Below, one piece after another: positions 5,617 through 54,482 of a stretch of 64,000 nucleotides of DNA. Numbering within the stretch: position 1 is the first letter of the stretch; each line of letters starts with the position of its first letter. A program made the position numbers and the translations under genes. The notes below the pieces were generated by a model. The model ran no database searches. It saw only the letters and a list, made by a program, of their open reading frames with translations, and was not told where the DNA came from. Origin of the DNA: Fusobacterium varium (GTDB lineage Bacteria; Fusobacteriota; Fusobacteriia; Fusobacteriales; Fusobacteriaceae); NCBI GenBank assembly GCA_002356455.1, contig AP017968.1, positions 3,224,001 through 3,288,000 on the forward strand. Reading direction: 5' to 3'.

Positions 5617-7116
5617 TTAGTCGAGATCATATATTTTTGAATATTTTTCTTTTAAATATTCTATATAGTATTTTGGTTCAAGCTCTTCTCCAGTTATCTT
5701 TTGAATAAGTTCAGCTGTTTCTCTTAGTTTTCCATAAATATGTATTCTATCTCTCAGCCATCCTTTTATCCTGTCTAGTTTACCATTTTCAAGAAGAGAA
5801 CTTACATCCATATCTTTTTTCATAGTATTATATAATTGAGCAGCATATACATTTCCCAGTGCATAAGATGGAAAATATCCAATAAGCCCGCATGCCCAAT
5901 GCACATCCTGCAGTACTCCCTCTCTATCTGTTTCTGGTACTACTCCTAGATACTCTTTCATCTTTTCATTCCACACTTCTGGAAGATTATCTATCTCTAT
6001 CTCTCCATTAATTATTCCTTTTTCTATTTCATATCTAATCATTATATGAAGTGAATATGTAAGCTCATCTGCCTCTGTTCTTATAAAAGAAGGTTCTACT
6101 CTGTTTATCTCCCTGTATAGCTCATCTATTTTTATTTCTTTAAGAAGTGGAAATATATCTATGTTTTTATTATATATCCCCTTCCAGAAACTCATGCTTC
6201 TTCCTATCATATTTTCATAAAACCTTGACTGAGACTCATGAAGTCCCATAGAACCACCAGTAGCTAAAGTAGTTCCTTGTAAATCATCTCCCACCTGTTG
6301 TTCATATATTCCATGCCCTGTTTCATGAATAGTGCTGAATATTGAAGAAAAAGGCATATCATCTATATATTTAGTAGTAAGCCTTACATCATTCTTATCC
6401 AGATTCAGTGTGAAAGGATGTTCACTTTCAGCTGTTACCCCTCTGTCAAAATCAAACCCCAAATATTCACTTAAAAATCTATTGAATTTTTTCTGTTCAT
6501 TAATATTTACTTTTCTGTTTAAACTTGATATTTTACTATTTTTATTTTTTTCCATTATCTTTTTTAGAAGTGGAACTATCTCTGCTCTTAGTGCAGTAAA
6601 AAATTCATCTAATTTTTCTGTAGTCATTCCCTTTTCATATTCACCCAAAATTATATCATACACTTTTTTATCTTTTTTTCCTTGATACTCTGCAAACTTT
6701 ATGTTAAATTCAAATATTTTTTTCAAATTTTCTTTAAACATATTAAAATCATTTTTAGCCTTTGCCTCTTCCCACACACCTTGAGTTTTAGCAGTCAGTT
6801 CTGAATACTCTTGATATTCATGAGGAGGTATTTTACTTATTTTCTCTATCTCTTCAGCCATATCATCTATTTCTTTTCTTTGAATATCATCTAATTCCTT
6901 CTCATTTGCTTTTAAAAATTTCACAAGATTTAAAAATTCTTCTGAGGTAACTATATCATAGCTTTTCATACTTAGATATCCTACCATCTCAGAAAGAAGT
7001 TCCTTTCCTTTTCTTGGAGTAATTGTTTCTAAATCCCATTGCAATATTCCCAATGATGAATCTATCAGTTTCTTTTCTTTAATTAATTCTCTAAATCTTT
7101 TTATTTCTTTTTTCAT
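5617..7116 (-). CDS. M32-family zinc carboxypeptidase (Taq type)
   Basis: Cytoplasmic metallocarboxypeptidase that removes C-terminal residues from peptides. At 499 residues it has the normal M32 length. The zinc motif HETGH is intact near residue 264, preceded by PFSSIFSTI and followed by GIYEQQ. The M32 motif GLHESQSRFYEN and the later IRTEADELTYSLHIMIRYE segment are also present. It is the second large gene of a minus-strand run and begins 5 bases after the nuclease stop, so co-transcription with the nuclease and the downstream DUF2207 and lemA genes is likely. The call is firm. Confidence 0.94.
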   Translation of the reverse strand: MKKEIKRFRELIKEKKLIDSSLGILQWDLETITPRKGKELLSEMVGYLSMKSYDIVTSEEFLNLVKFLKANEKELDDIQRKEIDDMAEEIEKISKIPPHEYQEYSELTAKTQGVWEEAKAKNDFNMFKENLKKIFEFNIKFAEYQGKKDKKVYDIILGEYEKGMTTEKLDEFFTALRAEIVPLLKKIMEKNKNSKISSLNRKVNINEQKKFNRFLSEYLGFDFDRGVTAESEHPFTLNLDKNDVRLTTKYIDDMPFSSIFSTIHETGHGIYEQQVGDDLQGTTLATGGSMGLHESQSRFYENMIGRSMSFWKGIYNKNIDIFPLLKEIKIDELYREINRVEPSFIRTEADELTYSLHIMIRYEIEKGIINGEIEIDNLPEVWNEKMKEYLGVVPETDREGVLQDVHWACGLIGYFPSYALGNVYAAQLYNTMKKDMDVSSLLENGKLDRIKGWLRDRIHIYGKLRETAELIQKITGEELEPKYYIEYLKEKYSKIYDLD

Positions 7117-43015: not shown

Positions 43016-43729
43016 TTATATCTGTAATTTCTCTAAACATTCATTTATCACTATGCCTTTTGTTCCTGTTTCTTTCAAATCATTACAAAATTCTTTTATT
43101 ATATTATAACTTTTTCCAAAATGCATTGGAATAATATTATCAGGTTGAAGTTCCTGAACAAAATATTTTCCTCCTAAAAAAGCATTATCCTCTAAACGTG
43201 GATCAACAGGAAAGAAAGCTATATTTATTTTTTCATTATTTTCCTTTATATCTTCTATTATTTTTTGAAAGGACTTTTTCATAAATTCCTCTTCTTCTTT
43301 TGTATCATCTGCCCAACACCACCAGTTGAGATCTCCTGCATGAAATATAACCTTATCCCCCATTTTTATCCAAAAAGATACTCCAGCATCAGTAGATCCA
43401 TACATTTTTATATCTAATCCTTCTACCTTGATTTTATCTCCTTCTGAAACTGTGTAGTATCTTTCAGGTATTGTTTTCAATTTTATATCACTGCTAAGTA
43501 CATAAGATACCTGCGGATTTTTCTCCTGCCATTTCAATATTTCAGAATTAAAATGATCAGCATGTATGTGAGAAGAAAAAACTATTACTTTTTTATCCAT
43601 CTCCATAACAAAATCTTCTATATTAATTAAAGCTTTTTTCTTTCTTGGAGTCTTGTAATAATCAAAAATTAAAACATACTCTGAATTTTCAACTACAAAA
43701 CAGCTGTGATAGATATAATAAATATTCAT
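43016..43729 (-). CDS. MBL-fold metallohydrolase
   Basis: Metallo-beta-lactamase fold protein of 237 residues. The signature SSHIHADHFN supplies the H-x-H-x-D-H metal ligands, IFHAGDLNWW provides a His/Asp, and PMHFGKS the final His. The overall pattern recalls UlaG-like/YycJ-like phosphodiesterases or lactonases; the substrate is not predictable. The gene stands alone with an extended -10 (TGGTATAAT) about 30 bases before the ATG. Confidence 0.9.
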   Translation of the reverse strand: MNIYYIYHSCFVVENSEYVLIFDYYKTPRKKKALINIEDFVMEMDKKVIVFSSHIHADHFNSEILKWQEKNPQVSYVLSSDIKLKTIPERYYTVSEGDKIKVEGLDIKMYGSTDAGVSFWIKMGDKVIFHAGDLNWWCWADDTKEEEEFMKKSFQKIIEDIKENNEKINIAFFPVDPRLEDNAFLGGKYFVQELQPDNIIPMHFGKSYNIIKEFCNDLKETGTKGIVINECLEKLQI

Positions 43730-44096
43730 ATTTTTCCTCCTTTTAAATTTAGACTATATATTATACCATCTTTCTTAAAAATCTAAAATCAAAATTTTTT
43801 AGTTTTTATTTTTAATAAATTTTCAAAATTTTGAAAAGTAAATTCATTTTAATATTATAAATAACAAGAATTTAATAAAATACTTTTTTCATTAAAATTT
43901 TAAAGATGAAGTGAAGCTATTTAAAAAATCTTATTCTCTATTTTTATATAATGTCATAATTATTTTAATTTTTAATTAAGTTGATAGATAATAAAAAAAA
44001 TGCTACAATAATTTGTAATAACACTATAGAACTATTTTAGATTTCACTTAAAATAACTTTGATTTATAGAACTAAAAAAATTTTTATAAAAACAAA
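43730..44096. other. intergenic region between MBL and GntR genes
   Basis: About 370 AT-rich bases between divergent genes. Apart from the MBL-gene -10 (43760-43765) and one perfect 18-bp palindrome, I see no gene or structured RNA. A -10-like TATAAT at about 43950 and TATAAA at 44085 are possible promoters for the regulator. Confidence 0.5.
43820..43837. repeat. 18-bp perfect palindrome
   Basis: TTTTCAAAATTTTGAAAA is self-complementary over 18 bases. It lies upstream of the MBL-fold gene and could be a regulator-binding site, though AT-rich palindromes arise easily in such DNA. Confidence 0.35.
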
Positions 44097-44111
44097 TGTC
44101 GACTTTCAACA
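44097..44111 (+). promoter_or_regulatory. putative FadR/GntR operator 1
   Basis: TGTCGACTTTCAACA lies about 50 bases before the regulator's start. It matches the site at 45016-45030 at 13 of 15 positions and includes the GTCGAC core, which is rare in this AT-rich DNA. Probably autoregulation (inference). Confidence 0.6.
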
Positions 44112-44159
44112 AACAACAAAATAATAATATTATTATATATACTAAGGATGGAGAGGAAT

Positions 44160-44840
44160 ATGGGTATTTTTAAACCAATAACAAATACAAATTTATATGT
44201 TGAAGTAATAAATTCTATTATTACAGCTATTGCAACAGGTGAACTCAAATCAGGAGAAAAAATAATTGAACAAACTATTGCTACTGAAATGAATATCAGC
44301 AGGGCTCCAATAAGGGAAGCTATAAGAGAACTTGCAGCTCAGGGAATTGTTGAATATATTCCTAAAAAAGGGGCAACAGTTGCCACACTGAATAAAAAAA
44401 GTATAGAAGAAACTTATTCTCTTCGTGCTCTTTTAGAAGGAATGGCAGTAAGCCTTGCTATAGATAATTTTACACCAGAAGATATAAAGACCATGGTATC
44501 TCTTTCTAAGACTATGACAGAAAGCTTGAAAAAACAAGATGTCGAAAACTTCATTAATTGTGATGTAGCTTTCCATAATCTTATCTGCCAGAGATCAAAC
44601 CATACAAAACTTCAAAAATTAATAGAGAATTTTGTTCTCCAAACACAGCTTTATATGAGAATGTCAAAGTATAATATGTTGATAAACTCAAGCCTTTCTA
44701 TTGAATATGGGGTACATGACAACCTCATAGAATTAATTAAAGAAAAGGATAAAGAAAAGGCAGAAAAAGAAATGAAAAATCATATAATGACTTCTGGAGA
44801 AGTTCTTATTAATTATCTTTTAAAAAGTGATGAAATATAA
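44160..44840 (+). CDS. GntR-family (FadR subfamily) transcriptional regulator
   Basis: 226-residue regulator. The N-terminal winged helix spans about residues 5-70 (NLYVEVINSIITAIATGELKSGEKIIEQTIATEMNISRAPIREAIREL, wing GIVEYIPKKGATVA). The all-helical FCD ligand domain follows, with metal-site residues in NCDVAFHNLICQRSNH and EYGVHDNLIELI. The start is taken at 44160, with GGAGAGG just upstream; the ATG at 44148 is itself inside that region. It faces the catabolic operon and has its own terminator. A shared operator motif before both implies it controls that operon, released by a pathway acid. Confidence 0.92.
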   Translation: MGIFKPITNTNLYVEVINSIITAIATGELKSGEKIIEQTIATEMNISRAPIREAIRELAAQGIVEYIPKKGATVATLNKKSIEETYSLRALLEGMAVSLAIDNFTPEDIKTMVSLSKTMTESLKKQDVENFINCDVAFHNLICQRSNHTKLQKLIENFVLQTQLYMRMSKYNMLINSSLSIEYGVHDNLIELIKEKDKEKAEKEMKNHIMTSGEVLINYLLKSDEI

Positions 44841-44853
44841 TCGTTATACTATC

Positions 44854-44895
44854 AAGGACTAAGTCTTGTATTTTACAAGGTTCAGTCCTTTTTAT
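44854..44895 (+). terminator. terminator of the GntR gene
   Basis: AAGGACTAAGTCTTGTA pairs with TACAAGGTTCAGTCCTT (one mismatch) around a short loop and is followed by TTTTTATATT. Confidence 0.88.
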
Positions 44896-44969
44896 ATTCA
44901 TTTTTAAATACAAACATACTGATAAAAAACCGTTTTGTAATTTTTCAGAATATTTTTTAATTTTTTCTA

Positions 44970-44998
44970 TTGACAAATTAAAAATTTGGGGGTATCAT
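44970..44998 (+). promoter_or_regulatory. sigma-70 promoter of the acid-sugar operon
   Basis: TTGACA (44970-44975), a 17-base spacer and TATCAT (44993-44998). The predicted start near 45005 lies about 10 bases before operator 2, so a bound repressor would block the polymerase. Confidence 0.75.
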
Positions 44999-45015
44999 TC
45001 AAGTAGAAAGTTGAT

Positions 45016-45030
45016 TGTCGACATTTAACA
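45016..45030 (+). promoter_or_regulatory. putative FadR/GntR operator 2
   Basis: TGTCGACATTTAACA, with a perfect TGTCGACA palindrome, sits between the promoter and the Fe-ADH start. It is the partner of the site in front of the regulator gene. Confidence 0.62.
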
Positions 45031-45065
45031 AAAAGTATTTTCTTTGAAAGTTACAAGGGGGAAAA

Positions 45066-46223
45066 ATGAAATTATACAATATGAATATCCCTTCTAATGT
45101 CTATGGAGGGTTTGGAAGTCTAGAACACATTGAAACTATTTTAAATAAAGAAAAAGTTTCTAATGTTATAGTATTTACCGATAAAGGTGTTAGAGGAAGC
45201 AGTTTCTTTTCTGCAATAATTGAAAAGATTAAAAACACAAAAGTAAATTATAACATAATAGATGATCTAGCTACTGAACCAAGCTACCATGATGTAGAAA
45301 AGGTTATGGAAGAACTGGACAAATATAAAAGCGATTTTATCATAGCAGTAGGTGGAGGAAGTGTAATGGACATTGCAAAATTATGTTCAATCTTAAAAGA
45401 TGCTTCTTATGCAGTAAAAGATCTTTTAAAAAATCCATCACAAGGAAGCAAACAGATAAAATCATTAATGATTCCAACAACTTGTGGAACTGGTTCAGAA
45501 GCAACATGCAACTCAATAGTTGCTGTTCCTGAAGAAGGACTTAAAGTGGGAATTGTAAATAATGGTCTTATTCCTGACTATGTGATATTGGACCCAGCAA
45601 TGATAGAAAAACTTCCTAAGAAGCTTATAGCTTCTACTGGAGTAGATGCTCTTGCTCACTGTGTAGAATGTCTTACTTCTAAAAAAGCTAATCCTTTCAG
45701 TGACTTATATGCACTGGCTGGAGGAGAACTTATATTTAATAATATAAGGAAAGCTTATCTGAATCCAGACGATATGGAAGCAAAAACTAATATGCTTATG
45801 GGAGCCTTTTATGGAGGAATAGCAATAACTTCATCAGGAACTACAGCAGTCCATGCACTTTCTTACCCACTAGGAGGAAAATATCATATCCCTCATGGAA
45901 TCTCTAATGCAATAATGATGAGCCCAGTAATGGAATTTAATAAAGATGCCTGCTTAGAGCAATTTTCAAGAATGTGCGACCGTTTAAGACCAGATATGAG
46001 TAAAAATACTCCTGAGGAAAAAGCTCAATACATTATAGATGAAATAAAAAATATTGTTGAAGTTACAGAAATACCTGTTAATTTAAAAGAATTTGGAGTA
46101 ACTATGAATGATCTTGATTTCTTAGTTGATGCTGGAAGTAAAGTAACTAGACTACTTTCAAATAATTTAAAGGAACTTAGCCTAGATGATATTAAAAATA
46201 TTTATTTAAAAGTTTTAAATTAG
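45066..46223 (+). CDS. iron-containing alcohol dehydrogenase
   Basis: Group III (Fe-type) NAD(P)-dependent alcohol dehydrogenase of 385 residues. The nucleotide site GGGSVMDIAK (about residue 97), PTTCGTGSEAT, and the metal ligands are visible: Asp and His in GVDALAHCVE, His in TAVHALSYPLGG and His in HIPHGISNA. It is the first gene of the operon, behind AAGGGGG. It presumably oxidises or reduces a hydroxy group of the sugar acid or its aldehyde; the substrate is not deducible. Confidence 0.92.
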   Translation: MKLYNMNIPSNVYGGFGSLEHIETILNKEKVSNVIVFTDKGVRGSSFFSAIIEKIKNTKVNYNIIDDLATEPSYHDVEKVMEELDKYKSDFIIAVGGGSVMDIAKLCSILKDASYAVKDLLKNPSQGSKQIKSLMIPTTCGTGSEATCNSIVAVPEEGLKVGIVNNGLIPDYVILDPAMIEKLPKKLIASTGVDALAHCVECLTSKKANPFSDLYALAGGELIFNNIRKAYLNPDDMEAKTNMLMGAFYGGIAITSSGTTAVHALSYPLGGKYHIPHGISNAIMMSPVMEFNKDACLEQFSRMCDRLRPDMSKNTPEEKAQYIIDEIKNIVEVTEIPVNLKEFGVTMNDLDFLVDAGSKVTRLLSNNLKELSLDDIKNIYLKVLN

Positions 46224-46236
46224 GAAGGTGAAGAAA

Positions 46237-47274
46237 TTGAATAAACTGCCTATAATAGGAATCACTATGGGAGATCCAGCAAGTATAGGTCCTGAAATAT
46301 CTCTTAAAGCTTTAAATAACAAAGACATATATGACAGATGCAGACCTGTTGTCATAGGAGATGCTTCAGTGATGAAGAAAGCTATTGAGTACACAGGATT
46401 AACTAATCTAAAGATTCATTCTATCAAAAATATATCAGAAGCTCTATTCCAGCATGGAACTGTAGATGTCTATGATATGGGAATTGTAAATCCTGAAGAC
46501 TTTGAAATCGGAAAAGTTTCAAAGTCAGCTGGAAATGCAGCTTTCCAATATGTAAAAAAAGTAATAGAATTAGCACAAAACAATGAAATAGATGCTACTA
46601 TTACAAATGCTCTCAATAAGGAATCTATAAATCTTGCTGGGCATCACTACTCTGGGCATACTGAAATCTATGCTGAATTCACAAAAACAAAGAAATATAC
46701 AATGATGCTTGCTCATGAAAATTTAAGAGTTGTACATGTAAGTACTCATGTATCTTTAAGAGAAGCTTGTGACAGATGTAAAAAAGAAAGAGTATATGAT
46801 GTTATAAAAATAGCTGATGATGCTTGTAAAAAACTTGGAATAAAAAATCCTAAAATTGGAGTGGCAGGACTTAATCCCCACTGTGGTGAAAATGGTCTTT
46901 TTGGTACAGAAGAAGTAGATGAAATCATCCCTGCAATAGAAAAAGCTCAGCAGGAAGGTATCAATGTAATTGGTCCTATCCCTCCTGACACTATCTTTTC
47001 TAAAGCTCGTGGAGGATGGTATGACATTGTTGTAGCTATGTATCATGATCAGGGACACATTCCTTTGAAAGTTATAGGATTTGTATATAATCAAAAAGAG
47101 CAGAAGTGGGAAGCAGTTGCTGGTGTAAATATAACTTTAGGCCTTCCTATAATAAGAAGCTCTGTAGATCATGGAACAGCCTTTGATCAATCAGGAACTG
47201 GAACAGCAAATGAATTGAGTCTTATAAATGCAATAGATTATGGAATCAAGTTAGCAGAAAACAACATAAAATAA
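46237..47274 (+). CDS. PdxA-family dehydrogenase (4-phospho-threonate/erythronate type)
   Basis: Metal- and NAD-dependent dehydrogenase of the PdxA family, 345 residues. Motifs: GITMGDPASIGPE at the start, SGHTEIYAE, HVSTHVSLREAC (metal His), GLNPHCGENGLFG, YHDQGHIPLKVIGF (metal His) and RSSVDHGTAFDQSGTG. PdxA2 enzymes paired with DUF1537 kinases oxidise and decarboxylate 4-phosphorylated four-carbon acids to DHAP. A DUF1537 kinase is encoded at the operon end, so that role is more likely than vitamin B6 synthesis. The start is TTG at 46237, 8 bases after AGGAAGG; a GTG at 46228 overlaps that site. Confidence 0.9.
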   Translation: MNKLPIIGITMGDPASIGPEISLKALNNKDIYDRCRPVVIGDASVMKKAIEYTGLTNLKIHSIKNISEALFQHGTVDVYDMGIVNPEDFEIGKVSKSAGNAAFQYVKKVIELAQNNEIDATITNALNKESINLAGHHYSGHTEIYAEFTKTKKYTMMLAHENLRVVHVSTHVSLREACDRCKKERVYDVIKIADDACKKLGIKNPKIGVAGLNPHCGENGLFGTEEVDEIIPAIEKAQQEGINVIGPIPPDTIFSKARGGWYDIVVAMYHDQGHIPLKVIGFVYNQKEQKWEAVAGVNITLGLPIIRSSVDHGTAFDQSGTGTANELSLINAIDYGIKLAENNIK

Positions 47275-47295
47275 AAATAAAATTGGGGGTAAATC

Positions 47296-48315
47296 ATGAA
47301 AAAATTGTTATTAATGTTATGTTTATGCGGAACATTTGTAGCTTGTGGTGAGAAAAAATCTGAAGATGCAGCAACAGCAGCTGGAAAAAAAGTCCACTTA
47401 ACATTTGCAACTCAAGAAGTAGGGACAGGAGCATATCAATATGCATCTGCTATATCTAATATCTTCTTAAAAGGACTTCCTGAAGGCTCAAATATTGACC
47501 TTACTACTGAATCTCCTGGTGGAGTTGGAGCTCCAATAGTTTTGGAAAATGAACAATGTGACATTATAATGAGTAATGCAGGACCTGCAAAATGGTCTGA
47601 AGAATCTGGAATATTAGGAAAAGAACCTACAAAATCTACAACAGCTATTGCTGGTGGATTAGGACATGACTTCTTAAACGTTTTATTTACAAAAGAGTTT
47701 GTTGATAAAACTGGAATCACAACAGTAGAAGAATTAGTAGAGAAAAAATATCCAGTAAGAATAGCTATCAAAAAAATAGGTACTCTTGGAAACCTAGCTG
47801 GAGTTAAACTTTTTGAAACTTTTGGTGTTACATTTGATGATATCAGATCTTGGGGTGGAAGTGTTGATTTATTAGGTGGAGATGCTATAAAGATTTATCT
47901 TCAAGATGGTAAAGCAGATATGACTATTGACCATGTTGCTGCTGGCCAAGCAAATACTACTGAACTTTGTATGACTAAAGCTATGTATTTCCCTCAATTG
48001 AGCCAAGATACTTTGAATAAACTTGCAAATGCAGGATTTGATTATATTGATATTGATGCTAATACATGGAATGGACAAACAAATGTTATTAAATCTGTTG
48101 GTTCTCAACAAGTTATCCTTGTTCATAAAAATATGGATGATGATACAGCTTACAGTCTAGCTAAATCTCTTTGTGAAGGAAAAGATGAACTTGCTTCTCA
48201 ACTTGCAGCTTTATCTTATTTCAATCCTGCAACAGCAGGAACTCCTGCTCAAACTGGAGTTAAATTACATCCAGGTGCAGAAAAATACTACAAAGAAAAA
48301 GGATACTTAAAATAA
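47296..48315 (+). CDS. TAXI-family TRAP transporter substrate-binding protein
   Basis: Periplasmic binding protein of a TAXI-type TRAP transporter, 339 residues. A signal peptide ends at a lipobox-like FVACG, so it is probably a lipoprotein. The mature part shows TFATQEVGTGAYQYASAISNI, TESPGGVGAPIVLENEQCDI and TAIAGGLGHDFLNVLF, as in TAXI proteins. Its permease gene follows after an intercistronic hairpin. The ligand is probably the acid handled by the operon. Confidence 0.9.
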   Translation: MKKLLLMLCLCGTFVACGEKKSEDAATAAGKKVHLTFATQEVGTGAYQYASAISNIFLKGLPEGSNIDLTTESPGGVGAPIVLENEQCDIIMSNAGPAKWSEESGILGKEPTKSTTAIAGGLGHDFLNVLFTKEFVDKTGITTVEELVEKKYPVRIAIKKIGTLGNLAGVKLFETFGVTFDDIRSWGGSVDLLGGDAIKIYLQDGKADMTIDHVAAGQANTTELCMTKAMYFPQLSQDTLNKLANAGFDYIDIDANTWNGQTNVIKSVGSQQVILVHKNMDDDTAYSLAKSLCEGKDELASQLAALSYFNPATAGTPAQTGVKLHPGAEKYYKEKGYLK

Positions 48316-48343
48316 AATTAACTTTAACTGAATGTGATAATAC

Positions 48344-48368
48344 TAAGGGTGATCTTTGATCACCCTTA
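48344..48368 (+). terminator. intercistronic hairpin after the TAXI binding-protein gene
   Basis: TAAGGGTGATC pairs perfectly with GATCACCCTTA around a 3-base loop. It is followed by TATAAAAAGGAG rather than a T-run. It more likely protects the abundant binding-protein mRNA from decay or gives partial termination. Confidence 0.65.
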
Positions 48369-48385
48369 TATAAAAAGGAGATAAA

Positions 48386-50275
48386 ATGGAAAAAAGTTCT
48401 AATAGTATACGAAATTATATTCTGAATACAATTGTTGTCATTTTCATTGGATTCCAATTGTATTTAGCTTTGATAAAACCATTGGATCCTATGCTTCAAA
48501 ATCCAATGCACTTGATTTTGGCTCTTTTGGTTATTTTTATAGTAAATCCTGCTGATAAAAATTCAGGAAAAAAATGGATGAAATTGTTGGACATCCCATT
48601 TTTTGTAGGTATCATTTTTCTGCTTTATTATACAATAGTTGAGTTTCCTCGTCTTAGTATCAGAGTACAATATGTAGATATTGTTACTTCTATGGATAAA
48701 ATGGCAACTATTATCTGTATACTGGTTCTGCTTGAAGCTGTTCGTAGAACTCTTGGAAAAATACTTTTCATATTTATACTTCTGTTTATAATATATGACT
48801 GGCTTGGAATGTATTGTCCAGGAATATTGTACTTTAAAGGTACAAATATGAGAAGCTTTACTGAAACAATGATGCTTGGTTCAGGAGGAATTTTTGGAAC
48901 ACCTCTATATACTTCTGCAACAAGTTTATTCTACTTTATTCTATTTGGAGCATTCTTCTCTCAATGCGGTGGAGGTCAGCTGCTTATAGACTTTGGTATG
49001 AAATTTTCCAATAAAAGTGCTGGTGGACCAGCAAAAGCTGCCATCATCTCTTCTGGTCTTATGGGAATGATATCTGGAAGTGCTGTTGCCAATGTATCAA
49101 CTACTGGGGTAATGACTATCCCTATGATGAAAAAAGTAGGGTATGAGCCTCATCAGGCTGGAGCTATTGAAGCTGTTGCTTCTACAGGTGGACAGATTAT
49201 GCCTCCAATCATGGGAGTAGGAGCTTTCATCATGGCAGAAATGCTTGGAGTTCCATATAAGACAGTAGCTTTTGCAGCAATTATTCCAGCTCTTGCATAT
49301 TATGGTTCAGTATTCTTCCTTGTTACATTCATGGCTAAAAAAGAAGCTATAGTATCTGACAAAGAAGCTGTAACTATTGAAATAAAAGATCCTCTTCTTG
49401 AAAGAGTTTATATGATAATTCCTGCAATCGTTCTGGTTATATATATCATTTCAGGAAAATCATTGATGAGAAGTGGAATGGTTGGTATATTTGCAGTTCT
49501 CCTTTGCAACTTATTCAGTAAATTCTACAAAGGGGGAAAATATTATCAATCTCTTAGAACAACAGCTGATACTGCTGTAGATGGCGTTAAACAAGCTTCT
49601 AACATCGCTATACCCACTGCTGCCTGTGGAATAATCATTGGTGTTGTTATTCAGTCAGGACTTGCTACAAGATTCTCTAATATAATTGCTAAAATAGGTA
49701 CTTCTCATTTAAGTATAGCTCTTATAATAGCAATGTTTGGATGTATGCTTCTTGGTATGGCTCTTCCTACAGTTGCTGCTTACCTGGTATCAAATATACT
49801 TTTTGTACCTGTATTGATAAAACTTAATGTAAATCCATTATCTGCAAATATGTTTGTATTCTACTTTGGAATAATGGCTCAAATTACTCCTCCAGTATGT
49901 CTTGCTTCTTATACTGCAGCAGGAATAGCTGGTGCAGATTCCTTGAAAACAGGGTTCACAGGCTTTATGTATGCACTGGTTGCTTTCTTAGTACCATTTG
50001 TATTTGTTTACAATCCAGAACTTCTGTTAATGGGAACTCCAGGAGAAATTGCTAAAGCTACAGTTATTCTGTTCTTTGGAACATATCTTCTTGCAGGAGC
50101 AATATCAGGATATATGGTAGCACCACTCAATAAATTCAACAGGGCTATCCTCTTTATTGGTGCACTTTGTATGATTGCTCCAGAAACTATAACAGATATA
50201 ATTGGATTGGTTATTGGAGTATATATAATTGCTGCTGGTCTTCTTAAAAAGAAAAAAGTTCCAGTAGAAGCATAA
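48386..50275 (+). CDS. TRAP transporter fused permease (4TM/12TM) subunit
   Basis: 629-residue membrane protein that fuses the small (DctQ-like) and large (DctM-like) TRAP subunits, the form found with TAXI binding proteins. About 16 or more hydrophobic segments are seen. DctM-type motifs include SGLMGMISGSAVANVSTTGVMTIPMMKKVGY, EAVASTGGQIMPPIMGVGAFIMAE, GMALPTVAAYLV and GIMAQITPPVCLASYTAAGIAGA. AAGGAG precedes the ATG. Uptake would be driven by an ion gradient, usually Na+. Confidence 0.93.
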   Translation: MEKSSNSIRNYILNTIVVIFIGFQLYLALIKPLDPMLQNPMHLILALLVIFIVNPADKNSGKKWMKLLDIPFFVGIIFLLYYTIVEFPRLSIRVQYVDIVTSMDKMATIICILVLLEAVRRTLGKILFIFILLFIIYDWLGMYCPGILYFKGTNMRSFTETMMLGSGGIFGTPLYTSATSLFYFILFGAFFSQCGGGQLLIDFGMKFSNKSAGGPAKAAIISSGLMGMISGSAVANVSTTGVMTIPMMKKVGYEPHQAGAIEAVASTGGQIMPPIMGVGAFIMAEMLGVPYKTVAFAAIIPALAYYGSVFFLVTFMAKKEAIVSDKEAVTIEIKDPLLERVYMIIPAIVLVIYIISGKSLMRSGMVGIFAVLLCNLFSKFYKGGKYYQSLRTTADTAVDGVKQASNIAIPTAACGIIIGVVIQSGLATRFSNIIAKIGTSHLSIALIIAMFGCMLLGMALPTVAAYLVSNILFVPVLIKLNVNPLSANMFVFYFGIMAQITPPVCLASYTAAGIAGADSLKTGFTGFMYALVAFLVPFVFVYNPELLLMGTPGEIAKATVILFFGTYLLAGAISGYMVAPLNKFNRAILFIGALCMIAPETITDIIGLVIGVYIIAAGLLKKKKVPVEA

Positions 50276-50286
50276 GGAGCAGTTAA

Positions 50287-50730
50287 ATGATAATAGATAA
50301 AATAGAAAATATATCATTTTATGAAGGAATAGTAAAAAATCTTTCTGCAGCAGTTAAAACATTAAGAGAATTTAAAACTTTTGAAACTGGAAGATATGAA
50401 TATGACTGGGGATTCTTCATGGTTCAAGAGGGAGTTACTAAAGGAATTGCAGAAGGAAATTTTGAAACTCATGACAAGTATATAGATATTCAGATCCTCT
50501 TAGAAGGGTCTGAAATTCTTGTTTGGGCTGAGCATAAAGAATTATTTGATCCAGAACCATATAATGAAATAAAAGATGCTACTTATTATAAGAACGGCAG
50601 TCTTGAAAACAGAATTAAAATAACTCCTGGAATGTTCTATATATGCTTTCCACATGATGGGCATAAAGCAGTAAGACATACAGAATTCTCAACAAGATAT
50701 AAAAAACTTGTTTTAAAATTACCAAAATAA
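50287..50730 (+). CDS. YhcH/YjgK/YiaL family protein
   Basis: 147-residue cupin-like DUF386 protein. Relatives are encoded in sialic acid (nan) and diketogulonate (yia) operons and are thought to act on sugar anomers or lactones. Family residues are present: GRYEYDWGFFMVQEG, ETHDKYIDIQILLEGSE (His, Asp, Gln), and the C-terminal FPHDGHKAVRH. Its presence suggests the operon's substrate is a sugar or sugar acid that can cyclise. It overlaps closely with the TRAP gene (11-base gap). Confidence 0.88.
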   Translation: MIIDKIENISFYEGIVKNLSAAVKTLREFKTFETGRYEYDWGFFMVQEGVTKGIAEGNFETHDKYIDIQILLEGSEILVWAEHKELFDPEPYNEIKDATYYKNGSLENRIKITPGMFYICFPHDGHKAVRHTEFSTRYKKLVLKLPK

Positions 50731-50749
50731 TAAAAAAGGGGATATAAAT

Positions 50750-52276
50750 ATGGATTATACACACCACAAAGTCGTTATTGCTGGAATGGGATTAGCAGCT
50801 CTGGCATCAGCAGCAAGAATGTATGAACTTGGTATAAGGGATATTGCAATTTATACTAAAGGTTATGGCGGAAGTCCAGTTATAGCTGCAATAAATTTTG
50901 TTTTGCCGGACAATCCTTATGGAGATACCATAGAAAAATATGCAGAAGATATGTTCAATGCAGGCTATAGAATAGCCAATAGAAAGCTTGTAAATGAAAT
51001 GGCTGAAAATACAATGAACGGATATGACCTTCTCACTAGATGGGGAATCGAATTTGCTAAAAATCCTGACGGAACTACAAAGCTCAGACACGTATCTGGA
51101 CATACTTTTCCAAGATCTCTATGCTCTACTAAAGAGTTAATAGGAGTGGAAATTGTTGATAAATTAATAGCTTCTTTAAAAGAAAAAGGAGTTAAATTCT
51201 ATGAAGGATATGAATGTGTAAAAGTTCTAAGTGATAAAAATAAAGTCTATGGAATCACAGTTAAAGATAAAAATGGAAATTTAGAAAATGTTTATTCTGA
51301 AATTGTCATAGCTGCATGGGGTGGAGTAGGAAATCTGTTTGGTTCTTCTACTTATCCAATGGATATCAAAGGAAATACTCTCTCAATAGCTAAAGAAGCT
51401 GGAGCAGATTTAATAGATGTAGAATTTTTAGAATATGAGCCTATGGTTGTAGCATATCCTCCTGGAGCAGTTGGAGAACCTTGTCCTACTGCTATGCTTG
51501 GAGAGGGAGCTCATTTACTTAATTCAAAAGGAGAAAGATTCCTTCTTAAAGTAAGACCCCAGGGAGAAGCTGGCTCACCTAAGACATTGCTGAACAAACA
51601 AATATGGAAAGAAGTTAATCTAGGAAATGGAACTGAGCATGGAGGAGTTTATGTTGATTTAAGACATATAGACAGAGAAGTGTTGAAAGCTTATCCATGG
51701 TTCTTTGATCGTTTGATGGAAAATGGAGTAGATCTTAATGAGCAATTACTAGAGGTAAGTCCTATGGCTCACAGCTTCTCTGGAGGAATCAAAGTGGACA
51801 GCAATTATGAATCTACAGTTAAAGGACTATATGCTATTGGTGAAGCTTGCGGTGGAATCCATGGAGCCTGCCGTTGTGCTGGAAATGCAGCTAGTCAGGC
51901 AGTTCTTTCAGGATTGCTTTGCGGACAGGCAGTTGCTGAAGCTGCTGCAAATAAAACTGAAGAAAAGAAAGAATTTTCTATTGAATATAACACAGACAAA
52001 GAAATATACAATAAATATGTTCCTCAAATAAAAGAAATAGCTGTTAAAGCTTTAGGAATATACAGAGATGGAAAATTACTAGAAGATGCAAAGAAAATCA
52101 TTGCTGATATCTTGGAAAAAGATGAATTAGCCAAAGATACAGAAACTTTACAAATAGCAGAGTCTATTTACTTCATGCTGAAAGCTGCTTCTGAACGTAA
52201 AGAGAGCAGAGGAACTCACATGAGATTGGATTATCCAGAAGAATCTAAAGAATTTGAAAAAGAAATCACTATTTAA
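50750..52276 (+). CDS. FAD-binding oxidoreductase (fumarate reductase flavoprotein-like)
   Basis: 508-residue flavoprotein of the succinate dehydrogenase/fumarate reductase/aspartate oxidase type. It has the N-terminal dinucleotide fold VVIAGMGLAALASAARMYELG, RHVSGHTFPRSLCST, a capping domain with EGAHLLNSKGERFLLK, and the FAD-binding end PMAHSFSGGIKVDSNYES ... GLYAIGEACGGIHGACRCAGNAASQAVLSG. No signal peptide or heme site is seen, so it is probably cytosolic. It may oxidise a hydroxy or amino acid intermediate of the pathway; electron partners are unknown. It is an unusual member of a PdxA2/DUF1537 operon. Confidence 0.85.
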   Translation: MDYTHHKVVIAGMGLAALASAARMYELGIRDIAIYTKGYGGSPVIAAINFVLPDNPYGDTIEKYAEDMFNAGYRIANRKLVNEMAENTMNGYDLLTRWGIEFAKNPDGTTKLRHVSGHTFPRSLCSTKELIGVEIVDKLIASLKEKGVKFYEGYECVKVLSDKNKVYGITVKDKNGNLENVYSEIVIAAWGGVGNLFGSSTYPMDIKGNTLSIAKEAGADLIDVEFLEYEPMVVAYPPGAVGEPCPTAMLGEGAHLLNSKGERFLLKVRPQGEAGSPKTLLNKQIWKEVNLGNGTEHGGVYVDLRHIDREVLKAYPWFFDRLMENGVDLNEQLLEVSPMAHSFSGGIKVDSNYESTVKGLYAIGEACGGIHGACRCAGNAASQAVLSGLLCGQAVAEAAANKTEEKKEFSIEYNTDKEIYNKYVPQIKEIAVKALGIYRDGKLLEDAKKIIADILEKDELAKDTETLQIAESIYFMLKAASERKESRGTHMRLDYPEESKEFEKEITI

Positions 52277-52294
52277 TTGAGGGGGAAAATATAA

Positions 52295-53197
52295 ATGAAA
52301 AATATAGAAATAAAAGGAGTTATAGTACCTCTATTAACTCCTATGAATGCTGACGAAACAATAAATGAAAAAGAATTGAGAAATCAGGTAAATCACCAAA
52401 TTGAATCAGGAATACATGCATTATTTCCTCTTGGAACAAATGGAGAAGCTTACATATTAAGTAGCAAAGAAAAAGAGCAGGTTTTAAAAATAGTAGTAGA
52501 TGAGGCAAAAGGAAGAGTTCCAGTTTATGGTGGAACTGGTTGTGTAAGTACAAAAGAAACAATAGAATTATCTCTAAAAGCTAAAGAGATAGGAATAGAT
52601 GTCCTTTCTATCATCACTCCATCATTTGCTGCTGCATCTCAAGATGAACTTTATGAACACTATAAAGAAGTGGCTGAAGCTGTAGATCTTCCAATAGTTC
52701 TATACAATATACCAGCAAGAACTGGAAATGCCCTAGCTCCTGCTACAGTTGAAAAATTAAGTAAAATTCCTAATATAGTTGGAGTAAAAGACAGCAGTGG
52801 AAACTTTGATAATATGCTTCAATATATAGAAAAAACAAGATATAGAAAAGACTTTGCTGTACTATCAGGAAATGACTCTCTTATCTTATGGTGTCTTTTA
52901 GCTGGAGGAAGAGGAGGAATAGCTGGTTGTGCCAACGTTTTTCCTTCTACAATGGCTTCTATCTATGATACTTTTGTAGCTGGAGATTTAGAAAAAGCTA
53001 GAGAAATTCAAGACAGTATCCGTTCTTTCAGAGATTGCTTTAAATTTGGAAACCCAAATACAATTGTAAAAACTGCTGTATCTCTTCTTGGATATCCTGT
53101 TGGAAAATGCAGAAAACCTTTCTGTCAAGTTCCAGAAGCTGGGATAGAAGCTATCAAAAAAGTTCTTGAAGCAAATGCTGCAAAAGGAATGAAATAA
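52295..53197 (+). CDS. dihydrodipicolinate synthase/NAL-family lyase
   Basis: Class I pyruvate-dependent aldolase or dehydratase of the DapA/NanA family (300 residues). Visible marks are GVIVPLLTPMNADETIN, the substrate loop FPLGTNGEAYILSS, VYGGTGCVSTKETIELS, the Tyr in IVLYNIPARTGN, the Schiff-base lysine in IVGVKDSSGNF, and VLSGNDSLILWCLLAGGRGGIAGCANV. In this operon it is more likely an aldolase or dehydratase for a keto-deoxy acid than a lysine-synthesis enzyme. GAGGGGG precedes the ATG. Confidence 0.9.
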   Translation: MKNIEIKGVIVPLLTPMNADETINEKELRNQVNHQIESGIHALFPLGTNGEAYILSSKEKEQVLKIVVDEAKGRVPVYGGTGCVSTKETIELSLKAKEIGIDVLSIITPSFAAASQDELYEHYKEVAEAVDLPIVLYNIPARTGNALAPATVEKLSKIPNIVGVKDSSGNFDNMLQYIEKTRYRKDFAVLSGNDSLILWCLLAGGRGGIAGCANVFPSTMASIYDTFVAGDLEKAREIQDSIRSFRDCFKFGNPNTIVKTAVSLLGYPVGKCRKPFCQVPEAGIEAIKKVLEANAAKGMK

Positions 53198-53213
53198 TCA
53201 ATAAGGAGTTCTT

Positions 53214-54482
53214 ATGATAAAGCTTGTAATTATTGCTGATGATTTAACTGGAGCTCTGGATACAGGAGTTCAATTTTCTAAAAAAAATATGTCTGTTATT
53301 GTTACAACTGATTTAAACTTTAATTTTGAAGAAATTTCTAAAGAAACAGATGTAATAGTTATTGATACTGAAAGCAGACATATTCCTGCTGATGAAGCCA
53401 AGGAAAGAGTAAAATCTACCCTTTCTAAATTTGATAAAAAAGAAACAAAATTCTTCTACAAGAAAACTGATTCCACTTTAAGAGGGAATATAGGAAGCGA
53501 AGTAGAAGGGTTCATGGAAGGTTTGAATATAGATGAAGTTTCATTTATTCCAGCTTTCCCATTAGGAAAAAGAACTGTAAAAGATGGAATACTTTATGTA
53601 GATAATATAAAATTAGCAAATACTCAATTTGCTATGGATATATTAAATCCAGTAACTGACAGTTTTATTCCTGATATAATAAATAAGCAGTCAGATATAA
53701 ATGTAAAATTAAAAGATATCAATGAAGAATTTTCTCCATTAAATGATAAAGAAAAACATATCTATATTTTTGATTCTGAAAATATGGAGGATATGGAAAA
53801 TATTGGAAAAGTTCTGCATAATAAAAACAGATTGAACTACACTATCGGAAATGCTGGATTTGCAGAAGTCCTTACACACTACATCAAGAGTGATGCTAAA
53901 AAAGAGGATATCATTTTAGAAGATGACAGAATTCTTTTTGTTTGTGGAAGTGTAAACATTACATCTCTTAAACAGTGTAAATATGCAGAAAAAATAGGAT
54001 ATTGTTCAGATAGTTTGAAGTTTGGAAATATAATTTCAAAGGATTACAAAAATTCTGCCAATTATATAACTGATAAAGAATATTTTAAGGAAAAGATTAA
54101 CAATAATAAAAAGTTCCTTTTAAGAACTTCTGACTCAGAAGATGTAATAAAAAAAGCTATTGAATATACAGAGAAAAATAGTATTTCTATGGAAGATTTA
54201 ACCTCTAACATAGCAAACAGTACAGGACAGCTTGTTTCTGATTTAATAAAAGAGCAAAATATAAATAACTTAATAATTTTTGGTGGAGATACTCTCATGG
54301 GTATCCTAAAAAATATAGGATGTCACTATATAATCCCCATCAGTGAAATTTTTCCAGGTGTTGTATTTACAAAAGCTGTAGGAAAGAATATTTCTGTAAA
54401 TGTTATTACTAAAGCTGGGGGATTTGGAGAAGAGAGTATTATAGAGAGAATCAATGAATTTTTAGAAAATCATAGTATTTAA
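53214..54482 (+). CDS. four-carbon acid sugar kinase family protein (DUF1537)
   Basis: 422-residue kinase of the DUF1537 group, members of which phosphorylate D-threonate, L-threonate or erythronate at O4. The N-domain begins LVIIADDLTGALDTGVQFSKK and contains FFYKKTDSTLRGNIGSE and FIPAFPLGKRTVKDG. The C-terminal nucleotide domain has IIFGGDTLMGILKNIG and ITKAGGFGEES. It is the last gene of the operon. Together with the PdxA-like dehydrogenase it predicts conversion of a four-carbon acid to DHAP. Confidence 0.92.
   Translation: MIKLVIIADDLTGALDTGVQFSKKNMSVIVTTDLNFNFEEISKETDVIVIDTESRHIPADEAKERVKSTLSKFDKKETKFFYKKTDSTLRGNIGSEVEGFMEGLNIDEVSFIPAFPLGKRTVKDGILYVDNIKLANTQFAMDILNPVTDSFIPDIINKQSDINVKLKDINEEFSPLNDKEKHIYIFDSENMEDMENIGKVLHNKNRLNYTIGNAGFAEVLTHYIKSDAKKEDIILEDDRILFVCGSVNITSLKQCKYAEKIGYCSDSLKFGNIISKDYKNSANYITDKEYFKEKINNNKKFLLRTSDSEDVIKKAIEYTEKNSISMEDLTSNIANSTGQLVSDLIKEQNINNLIIFGGDTLMGILKNIGCHYIIPISEIFPGVVFTKAVGKNISVNVITKAGGFGEESIIERINEFLENHSI

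What the first reader, a model, noticed from the sequence alone, without database searches (positions are those of the whole stretch)
44097..45030. Matching TGTCGAC operators before the FadR-type regulator and its operon
TGTCGACTTTCAACA and TGTCGACATTTAACA differ at two positions and share a GC-rich core that is rare in this DNA. One lies before the regulator and the other just after the operon promoter. This predicts autorepression and a roadblock on the operon.
Basis: partly seen in the sequence, partly recalled or inferred. Interest (0 to 1): 0.5.

Follow-up and report, generated by a model that had tools for sequence, protein, structure and literature searches.

The report
FadR-type repressor's two conserved operators
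A Fusobacteriaceae genome carries two copies of a rare palindromic DNA site, one before a regulator gene and one at the start of the sugar-acid-type operon beside it, and the operon copy is kept in the six relatives found to carry the regulator; it is very probably a real but ordinary repressor switch.

Summary
TGTCGACWTTYAACA has exactly two perfect matches in the 4.12-Mb genome, at the stated places (expectation about 0.005). The real unit is a 20-bp pseudo-palindrome around GTCGAC: 44091-44110 (weak, 5/10 arm symmetry) and 45010-45029 (8/10). Of 61 Fusobacteriaceae genomes, 7 carry an orthologue of the FCD-GntR regulator, and only those 7 carry the operon-site pattern, each 20-22 bp after the -10 of a TTGACA-17-bp promoter. 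The regulator's own site is in 5 of 7. The motif fits the published FadR-subfamily form and is one letter from ATTGTCGACAAT, the motif of the Pseudomonas PrpR repressor. Best reading: the regulator represses the operon (Fe-ADH, PdxA, TAXI-TRAP, YhcH, FAD enzyme, DapA-like, DUF1537 kinase) and, more weakly, itself. 'Roadblock' needs correction: at the operon the site lies within the initiating polymerase's reach (occlusion, inferred); only the self site, about 91 bp past its conserved -10, is placed for a true roadblock. Binding, sign and inducer are untested. New member of a known kind.

The parts
43981..44009 (+). Putative regulator promoter, TTGATA-17-TACAAT with TG before the -10
   Evidence: 10 of 12 matches; TTGATA or TTGATT with TACAAT in 4 of 4 genomes of the genus (spacing 17, in G001 16), TTGAGA/TATGAT in G049
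44091..44110 (+). Operator O1 before the regulator, AACAAATGTCGACTTTCAAC (5/10 arm symmetry)
   Evidence: a GTCGAC site there in 5 of 7 genomes with the regulator
44148..44840 (+). GntR-family regulator with FCD domain, 230 aa (226 aa if it starts at ATG 44160)
   Evidence: PF00392 and PF07729 above cut-off; 7 of 61 family genomes have it at E<=1e-40
44854..44890 (+). Probable intrinsic terminator hairpin between regulator and operon, followed by a T-rich tract
   Evidence: -14.7 kcal/mol, z -4.6, 0 of 200 shuffles as good; not listed by the simple scan
44970..44998 (+). Operon promoter TTGACA-17-TATCAT
   Evidence: 11 of 12 matches; TTGACA and 17-bp spacing in 7 of 7 genomes
45010..45029 (+). 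Operator O2, GTTGATTGTCGACATTTAAC (8/10 arm symmetry), centre 21.5 bp after the -10
   Evidence: one place in each of the 7 genomes with the regulator, none in the other 54
45066..46223 (+). Iron-containing alcohol dehydrogenase
   Evidence: PF00465/PF25137
46228..47274 (+). PdxA-family dehydrogenase; over the cut-off of the general PdxA model, below that of the D-threonate 4-phosphate dehydrogenase model
   Evidence: PF04166; TIGR00557 348.8 bits (cut-off 290.35), NF002891 349.1 (cut-off 583)
47296..48315 (+). TAXI-type TRAP solute-binding protein
   Evidence: PF16868; TIGR02122 at 84.5 bits, cut-off 84.35
48386..50275 (+). Fused TRAP permease
   Evidence: PF06808; TIGR02123 over cut-off
50287..50730 (+). 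YhcH/YjgK/YiaL (DUF386) protein
   Evidence: PF04074; no tblastn hit at E<=1e-15 at the locus in G001, G049, G033
50750..52276 (+). FAD-dependent oxidoreductase, fumarate reductase / aspartate oxidase-like
   Evidence: PF00890; none of the 25 shown of 30 NCBIfam models is over its cut-off
52295..53197 (+). DapA-family lyase or aldolase
   Evidence: PF00701; TIGR00674 240.6 bits, cut-off 206.15
53214..54482 (+). DUF1537 acid-sugar kinase; best model D-threonate kinase, below its cut-off
   Evidence: PF07005/PF17042; NF047819 214.3 bits, cut-off 450

Best explanation
The two sites are operators of the adjacent FCD-GntR regulator. A dimer binds the palindrome (about GTNNATTGTCGACAWTNNAC) just downstream of the operon start point and stops RNA polymerase from initiating or escaping. 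It also binds a weaker copy in the leader of its own gene, giving mild autorepression. A carboxylate inducer, probably the imported acid or a product of it, held through the FCD metal site, releases it. Shown here: the sites, their rarity, the palindrome, conservation and co-occurrence with the regulator, promoter geometry, a probable terminator between the two units. Inferred: binding, dimer, sign of regulation, start points, inducer.
For: Only two perfect matches in the own genome, expectation 0.005. The regulator is in 7 of 61 Fusobacteriaceae genomes and the 20-bp pattern in exactly those 7, one place each, 0 of 54 others, 0 reversed-control matches (the pattern was written to fit sites already seen, so the informative part is the 0 of 54 and the single place per genome; expectation 9e-5 per genome of this composition). 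In 7 of 7 the site is centred 20-22 bp after the -10 of a TTGACA-17-bp promoter, although the rest of the intergenic DNA has diverged in G049, G033 and G040; their regulators are 75, 64 and 62% identical to the window's. Arm symmetry is 9/10 in G033 and 10/10 in G040. The core fits the published FadR-subfamily form NyGTM-N0-1-KACNy and the 2-nt spacing of the PrpR/UxuR groups (PMC4494728: passages, one section). Pseudomonas aeruginosa PrpR, a GntR-FCD repressor with predicted motif ATTGTCGACAAT, shifts the DNA upstream of prpR that holds it (passages of PMC9765439). D135, H139, H186 and H208 (counted from ATG 44160) are invariant in 7 of 7; the three His align with His of chain 3sxy that, by their spacing, are the metal ligands of TM0439 (ligands named in PMC7674646).
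Against: No binding, transcript or expression data. Position does not fix the sign: some FCD regulators activate (CitO, start of abstract of PMC4746285). O1 has only 5/10 arm symmetry and is missing in G033 and G040. In 5 of 7 genomes the operon site has a full TKGT box on one side only. Four of the seven genomes are one genus, so not independent. The genome holds nine FCD-domain genes, at least one of which probably uses the same GTCGAC core.
Confidence: 0.85

Rival explanations
1. The sites are bound by this regulator, but it acts as an activator or as a dual regulator, not as a simple repressor.
For: Some FCD regulators activate, e.g. CitO (start of abstract, PMC4746285).
Against: The operon site lies 20-22 bp downstream of the -10 in 7 of 7 genomes, and the window's promoter is near consensus (11 of 12) and should need no activator; activator sites normally lie upstream of the -35 (general knowledge).
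Confidence: 0.07
2. Another of the nine FCD-domain proteins of the genome, above all the one encoded at the end of the CitMHS operon, binds these sites, alone or by cross-talk.
For: Nine FCD matches in the own genome. A GTCGAC palindrome, ACTTGTCGACAAG, lies before the CitMHS operon in G000, G007 and G001 at a similar place after a -10.
Against: That regulator is found at E<=1e-40 in 4 of 61 genomes (G000, G007, G001, G022), not in G002, G049, G033 and G040, which keep the operon site studied here; the flanks of the two motifs differ. The other seven paralogues were not tested this way.
Confidence: 0.06
3. Chance: two unrelated AT-rich intergenic stretches share a short word.
For: AT-rich stretches share 13/15 words easily (972 of 1000 shuffled pairs).
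Against: Six matched G/C letters in 0 of 1000 shuffled pairs; two exact copies in 4.12 Mb; conservation in other genera at fixed spacing.
Confidence: 0.01
4. The element acts in the transcript (5' leader RNA) and not as DNA.
For: Both sites lie downstream of predicted promoters.
Against: No Rfam match at E<=1 in 43700-45100; a palindrome without a loop is a poor RNA hairpin but a normal dimer site (general knowledge).
Confidence: 0.01

Closest known systems
Pseudomonas aeruginosa PrpR (PA0797), GntR-FCD repressor of the 2-methylcitrate operon
   Same: Motif ATTGTCGACAAT, identical to the 12-bp core of the operon site in G033 and G040 and one letter from the window's; GntR and FCD domains; binds DNA upstream of its own gene (passages of PMC9765439)
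   Different: Different operon and organism; PrpR is counted among the proteins of the prp operon it represses, while here regulator and operon have separate promoters with a probable terminator between
[quoted passage not shown]
   Same: AT-rich palindrome with GT and AC two nt apart
   Different: Extended outer arms GT...AC conserved here; the word Fusobacter- does not occur in that paper's main text
Escherichia coli DgoR
   Same: FCD-domain repressor of a sugar-acid operon with inverted-repeat operators and a metal-dependent ligand pocket; Asp and His four residues apart as here (PMC7674646: start of abstract, passages)
   Different: Two inverted repeats overlapping one promoter; metal ligands D146, H150, H195 only
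D-threonate pathway (DtnK DUF1537 kinase and PdxA2)
   Same: PdxA-family dehydrogenase and DUF1537 kinase in one operon; DtnK as a DUF1537 D-threonate kinase is in a passage of PMC10971088; the PdxA2 step is recalled
   Different: Both proteins are below the cut-offs of the D-threonate models, and the dehydrogenase is over that of the general PdxA model; Fe-ADH, FAD enzyme, DapA-like lyase and YhcH are unexplained

Membership tests
GntR family, FadR/FCD subfamily | N-terminal GntR winged helix and C-terminal FCD domain over curated cut-offs | tested here: met
   PF00392 55.1 bits (cut-off 27), PF07729 74.9 bits (cut-off 24.3)
GntR family, FadR/FCD subfamily | Metal-binding Asp/His set of the FCD pocket | tested here: met
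   D135, H139, H186, H208 invariant in 7 of 7; the His align with His of 3sxy/TM0439; roles from passages of PMC7674646. Metal binding itself not tested
FadR-subfamily operator | Core form NyGTM-N0-1-KACNy (here GTC-GAC) | tested here: met
   O1 and O2 in the window, O2 in 7 of 7 genomes; form from PMC4494728
FadR-subfamily operator | Flanking TKGT/ACMA boxes on both sides | tested here: inconclusive
   O2 has both boxes in G033 and G040 and one (TTGT) in G000, G001, G002, G007, G049; O1 of the window (ATGTCGACTT) has neither in full (boxes)
FadR-subfamily operator | Bound by the cognate regulator in vitro | not testable with these tools
   Needs gel shift or footprint
Autorepressed regulator | Operator in its own promoter or leader, conserved with the gene | tested here: inconclusive
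   Site in 5 of 7 genomes, absent in G033 and G040
Elongation roadblock at the operon | Operator clear of the initiating polymerase, well downstream of the start | tested here: not met
   Centre 21.5 bp after the -10, about +15 if the start is 7 nt after the -10, which is assumed
D-threonate catabolic operon (DtnK/PdxA2) | Kinase and dehydrogenase over the curated D-threonate cut-offs | tested here: not met
   NF047819 214.3 of 450; NF002891 349.1 of 583

The most novel reading that the evidence does not exclude
In this genus the operator of the regulator gene sits 91-111 bp past the conserved -10, against 15 bp in G049: autorepression may have changed from occlusion to a true transcription roadblock, while a second FCD regulator of the same cell uses the same GTCGAC core and is kept apart only by the flanks (ATT..AWT against CTT..AAG).
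Probability: 0.3. Interest if true: 0.35.

Novelty: new member of a known kind. Interest (0 to 1): 0.22.

Why it matters
It gives a testable small regulon for a Fusobacteriaceae operon that looks like sugar-acid use: regulator, operator consensus, promoter and a two-site design with a more symmetric operon site and a less symmetric self site. It may also give a natural pair of paralogous FCD regulators with one core and different flanks, useful for mapping what decides operator choice. In itself it is a standard bacterial repressor circuit.

Tried and rejected
Loose matching of the 15-mer (up to 3 mismatches in the window, 2 in the genome) gave no clear excess and was not used as evidence. The symmetric pattern GTWRAWWGTCGACWWTYWAC with up to 3 mismatches gave 15 places in the own genome (48 for the backward control), only two of which hold GTCGAC, namely the two operators; no wider regulon was found. 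GTT-N4-GTCGAC-N4-AAC with up to one mismatch over 120 genomes was mostly noise, and its list was cut short. WWWGTCGACWWW over 61 relatives was too unspecific to use.

Of the four WWGTCGACWW places in the own genome, two are the operators, one (3340718) lies at the start of a coding sequence that looks IclR-like (that name is by eye) and was set aside, and one (3057692) leads to the CitMHS operon. That motif, with up to 2 mismatches, matched 25 of 61 genomes, mostly noise without an intact GTCGAC palindrome; it is exact before CitMHS in G000, G007 and G001; G022, which has the paralogous regulator, holds ACTTGTCGACAAG too, but before an unrelated gene, so that case is inconclusive. Upstream and downstream DNA of eight FCD paralogues was scanned for GT-N2-3-AC sites with the TKGT/ACMA letters next to them; few and unconvincing matches.

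Avoidance of GTCGAC as a restriction site was considered; the low counts are near what the dinucleotide and trinucleotide make-up predicts, so it was dropped. A proximal promoter for the regulator was looked for by eye; none seemed conserved in the genus. Rfam: nothing at E<=1. Structure prediction was not run. Literature: searches (10 of 18 papers listed; 1 paper) listed none on this regulator or operon in Fusobacteria by title or start of abstract; two searches were about the pathway; only the held open-access library was searched. The search for TGTCGACA with GntR (4 papers) led to PrpR; the other three were not opened.

Full report
What is there. The window lies in a 4.12-Mb genome. The regulator (44148-44840) has GntR and FCD domains over cut-off. 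The genes at 45066-54482 code for an iron alcohol dehydrogenase, a PdxA-family dehydrogenase, a TAXI-type TRAP binding protein and fused permease, a YhcH-family protein, a FAD enzyme, a DapA-family lyase and a DUF1537 kinase.

Is it more than chance? In the own genome the degenerate 15-mer has exactly two perfect matches, against an expectation of 0.0047 or 0.0016 under order-1 or order-2 models of the window's composition. Two non-coding stretches this AT-rich nearly always share a 13/15 word (972 of 1000 shuffles), but one with six matched G/C letters came up in 0 of 1000. Looser matching shows no clear excess (8 against 4.9; 14 against 89 for the backward pattern, which lacks the CpG).

The proper unit. 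Both sites are centred on GTCGAC. The operon site is a 20-bp pseudo-palindrome, GTTGATTGTCGACATTTAAC (45010-45029), 8 of 10 arm positions symmetric; the regulator site AACAAATGTCGACTTTCAAC (44091-44110) has 5 of 10.

Conservation. Of 61 Fusobacteriaceae genomes searched, 7 hold an orthologue of the regulator at E<=1e-40: four of the window's genus, G049 (75% identity), G033 (64%) and G040 (62%). The pattern GTWDATTGTCGACAWTHWAC occurs at one place in each of those 7 and in none of the other 54; the reversed control gives none. Because the pattern was written to fit sites already seen, the 7 of 7 is by construction; the 0 of 54 and the single place per genome are not. The operon site is centred 20-22 bp after the -10 of a TTGACA-17-bp promoter in 7 of 7, and its symmetry is 7/10 in G049, 9/10 in G033 and 10/10 in G040. 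The regulator's own site is in 5 of 7; the fetched stretches of G033 and G040 hold no GTCGAC there. Gene order of the operon is kept in 5 of the 6 relatives (G007, G002, G001, G049, G033), apart from YhcH, without a hit at E<=1e-15 at the locus in G001, G049 and G033; the sixth, G040, is cut off by its contig end inside the PdxA gene.

Separate units. A hairpin at 44854-44890 (-14.7 kcal/mol, z -4.6) followed by a T-rich tract separates regulator and operon; similar hairpins are visible by eye in G049, G033 and G040. So each site probably serves its own promoter.

Mechanism. With a start point assumed about 7 nt after the -10, the operon operator covers about +6 to +25, within reach of an initiating polymerase: occlusion or blocked escape, much like a lac-type downstream operator (recalled), is more likely than an elongation roadblock. 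The only conserved promoter found for the regulator in this genus (TTGATA or TTGATT, TACAAT) ends 91-111 bp before the centre of its site, but 15 bp before it in G049; if that promoter is the one used, a roadblock is the likely mode in the window's genus. The weaker symmetry of the self site predicts milder autorepression. The FCD metal ligands are invariant, so a carboxylate ligand is likely. The operon content suggests a four-carbon sugar acid, but the kinase and PdxA proteins are below the curated D-threonate cut-offs and the PdxA protein is over the general PdxA cut-off, so the substrate is open.

Compared with what is known. PMC4494728 (passages, its FadR section) gives the FadR-subfamily form NyGTM-N0-1-KACNy with TKGT/ACMA boxes and names groups with 2-nt spacing, PrpR among them. 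The core form is met by both sites; the boxes are complete on both sides only in the operon sites of G033 and G040, on one side in the other five, and in neither arm of the window's self site. In PMC9765439 (passages) the predicted motif of P. aeruginosa PrpR is ATTGTCGACAAT, and purified PrpR binds the region upstream of prpR that holds it. That 12-mer is identical to the core in G033 and G040 and one letter from the window's. The finding is thus a new member of a known kind.

A neighbouring case. The own genome has nine FCD-domain genes. ACTTGTCGACAAG lies after a TATAAT box before a CitMHS / CoA-transferase / HMGL-like / oxidoreductase operon that ends in one of them. It is exact in G000, G007 and G001 before the same gene; that regulator is found at E<=1e-40 in G000, G007, G001 and G022 only, of 61; in G022 the palindrome lies before an unrelated gene. 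That the two regulators share a core and differ in flanks is inference.

Limits.

Noticed in passing
G000:C1:3057690-3057707 (L098 about 5691-5708): Further GTCGAC palindrome, ACTTGTCGACAAG, just after a TATAAT box and before a CitMHS / CoA-transferase III / HMGL-like / 2-oxoacid oxidoreductase operon that ends in its own FCD-GntR gene; kept in G007 and G001.
   Followed up: partly
L070 (G001), TAXI, TRAP and DUF1537 genes: The tblastn hits of three operon genes break into two pieces each in G001: frame breaks or sequencing errors.
   Followed up: no
window:50287-50730: The YhcH-family gene is present in G000, G007 and G002 but gave no hit at the locus in G001, G049 and G033, so it may be an optional part of the pathway.
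   Followed up: no
window:50750-53197: The FAD enzyme and DapA-like lyase sit in a PdxA/DUF1537 operon without an assigned step; the pathway may not be plain D-threonate use.
   Followed up: no
window:44010-44090: The distance from the regulator's conserved -10 to its operator is 76-96 bp longer in this genus than in G049; no Rfam match in the window's stretch.
   Followed up: partly
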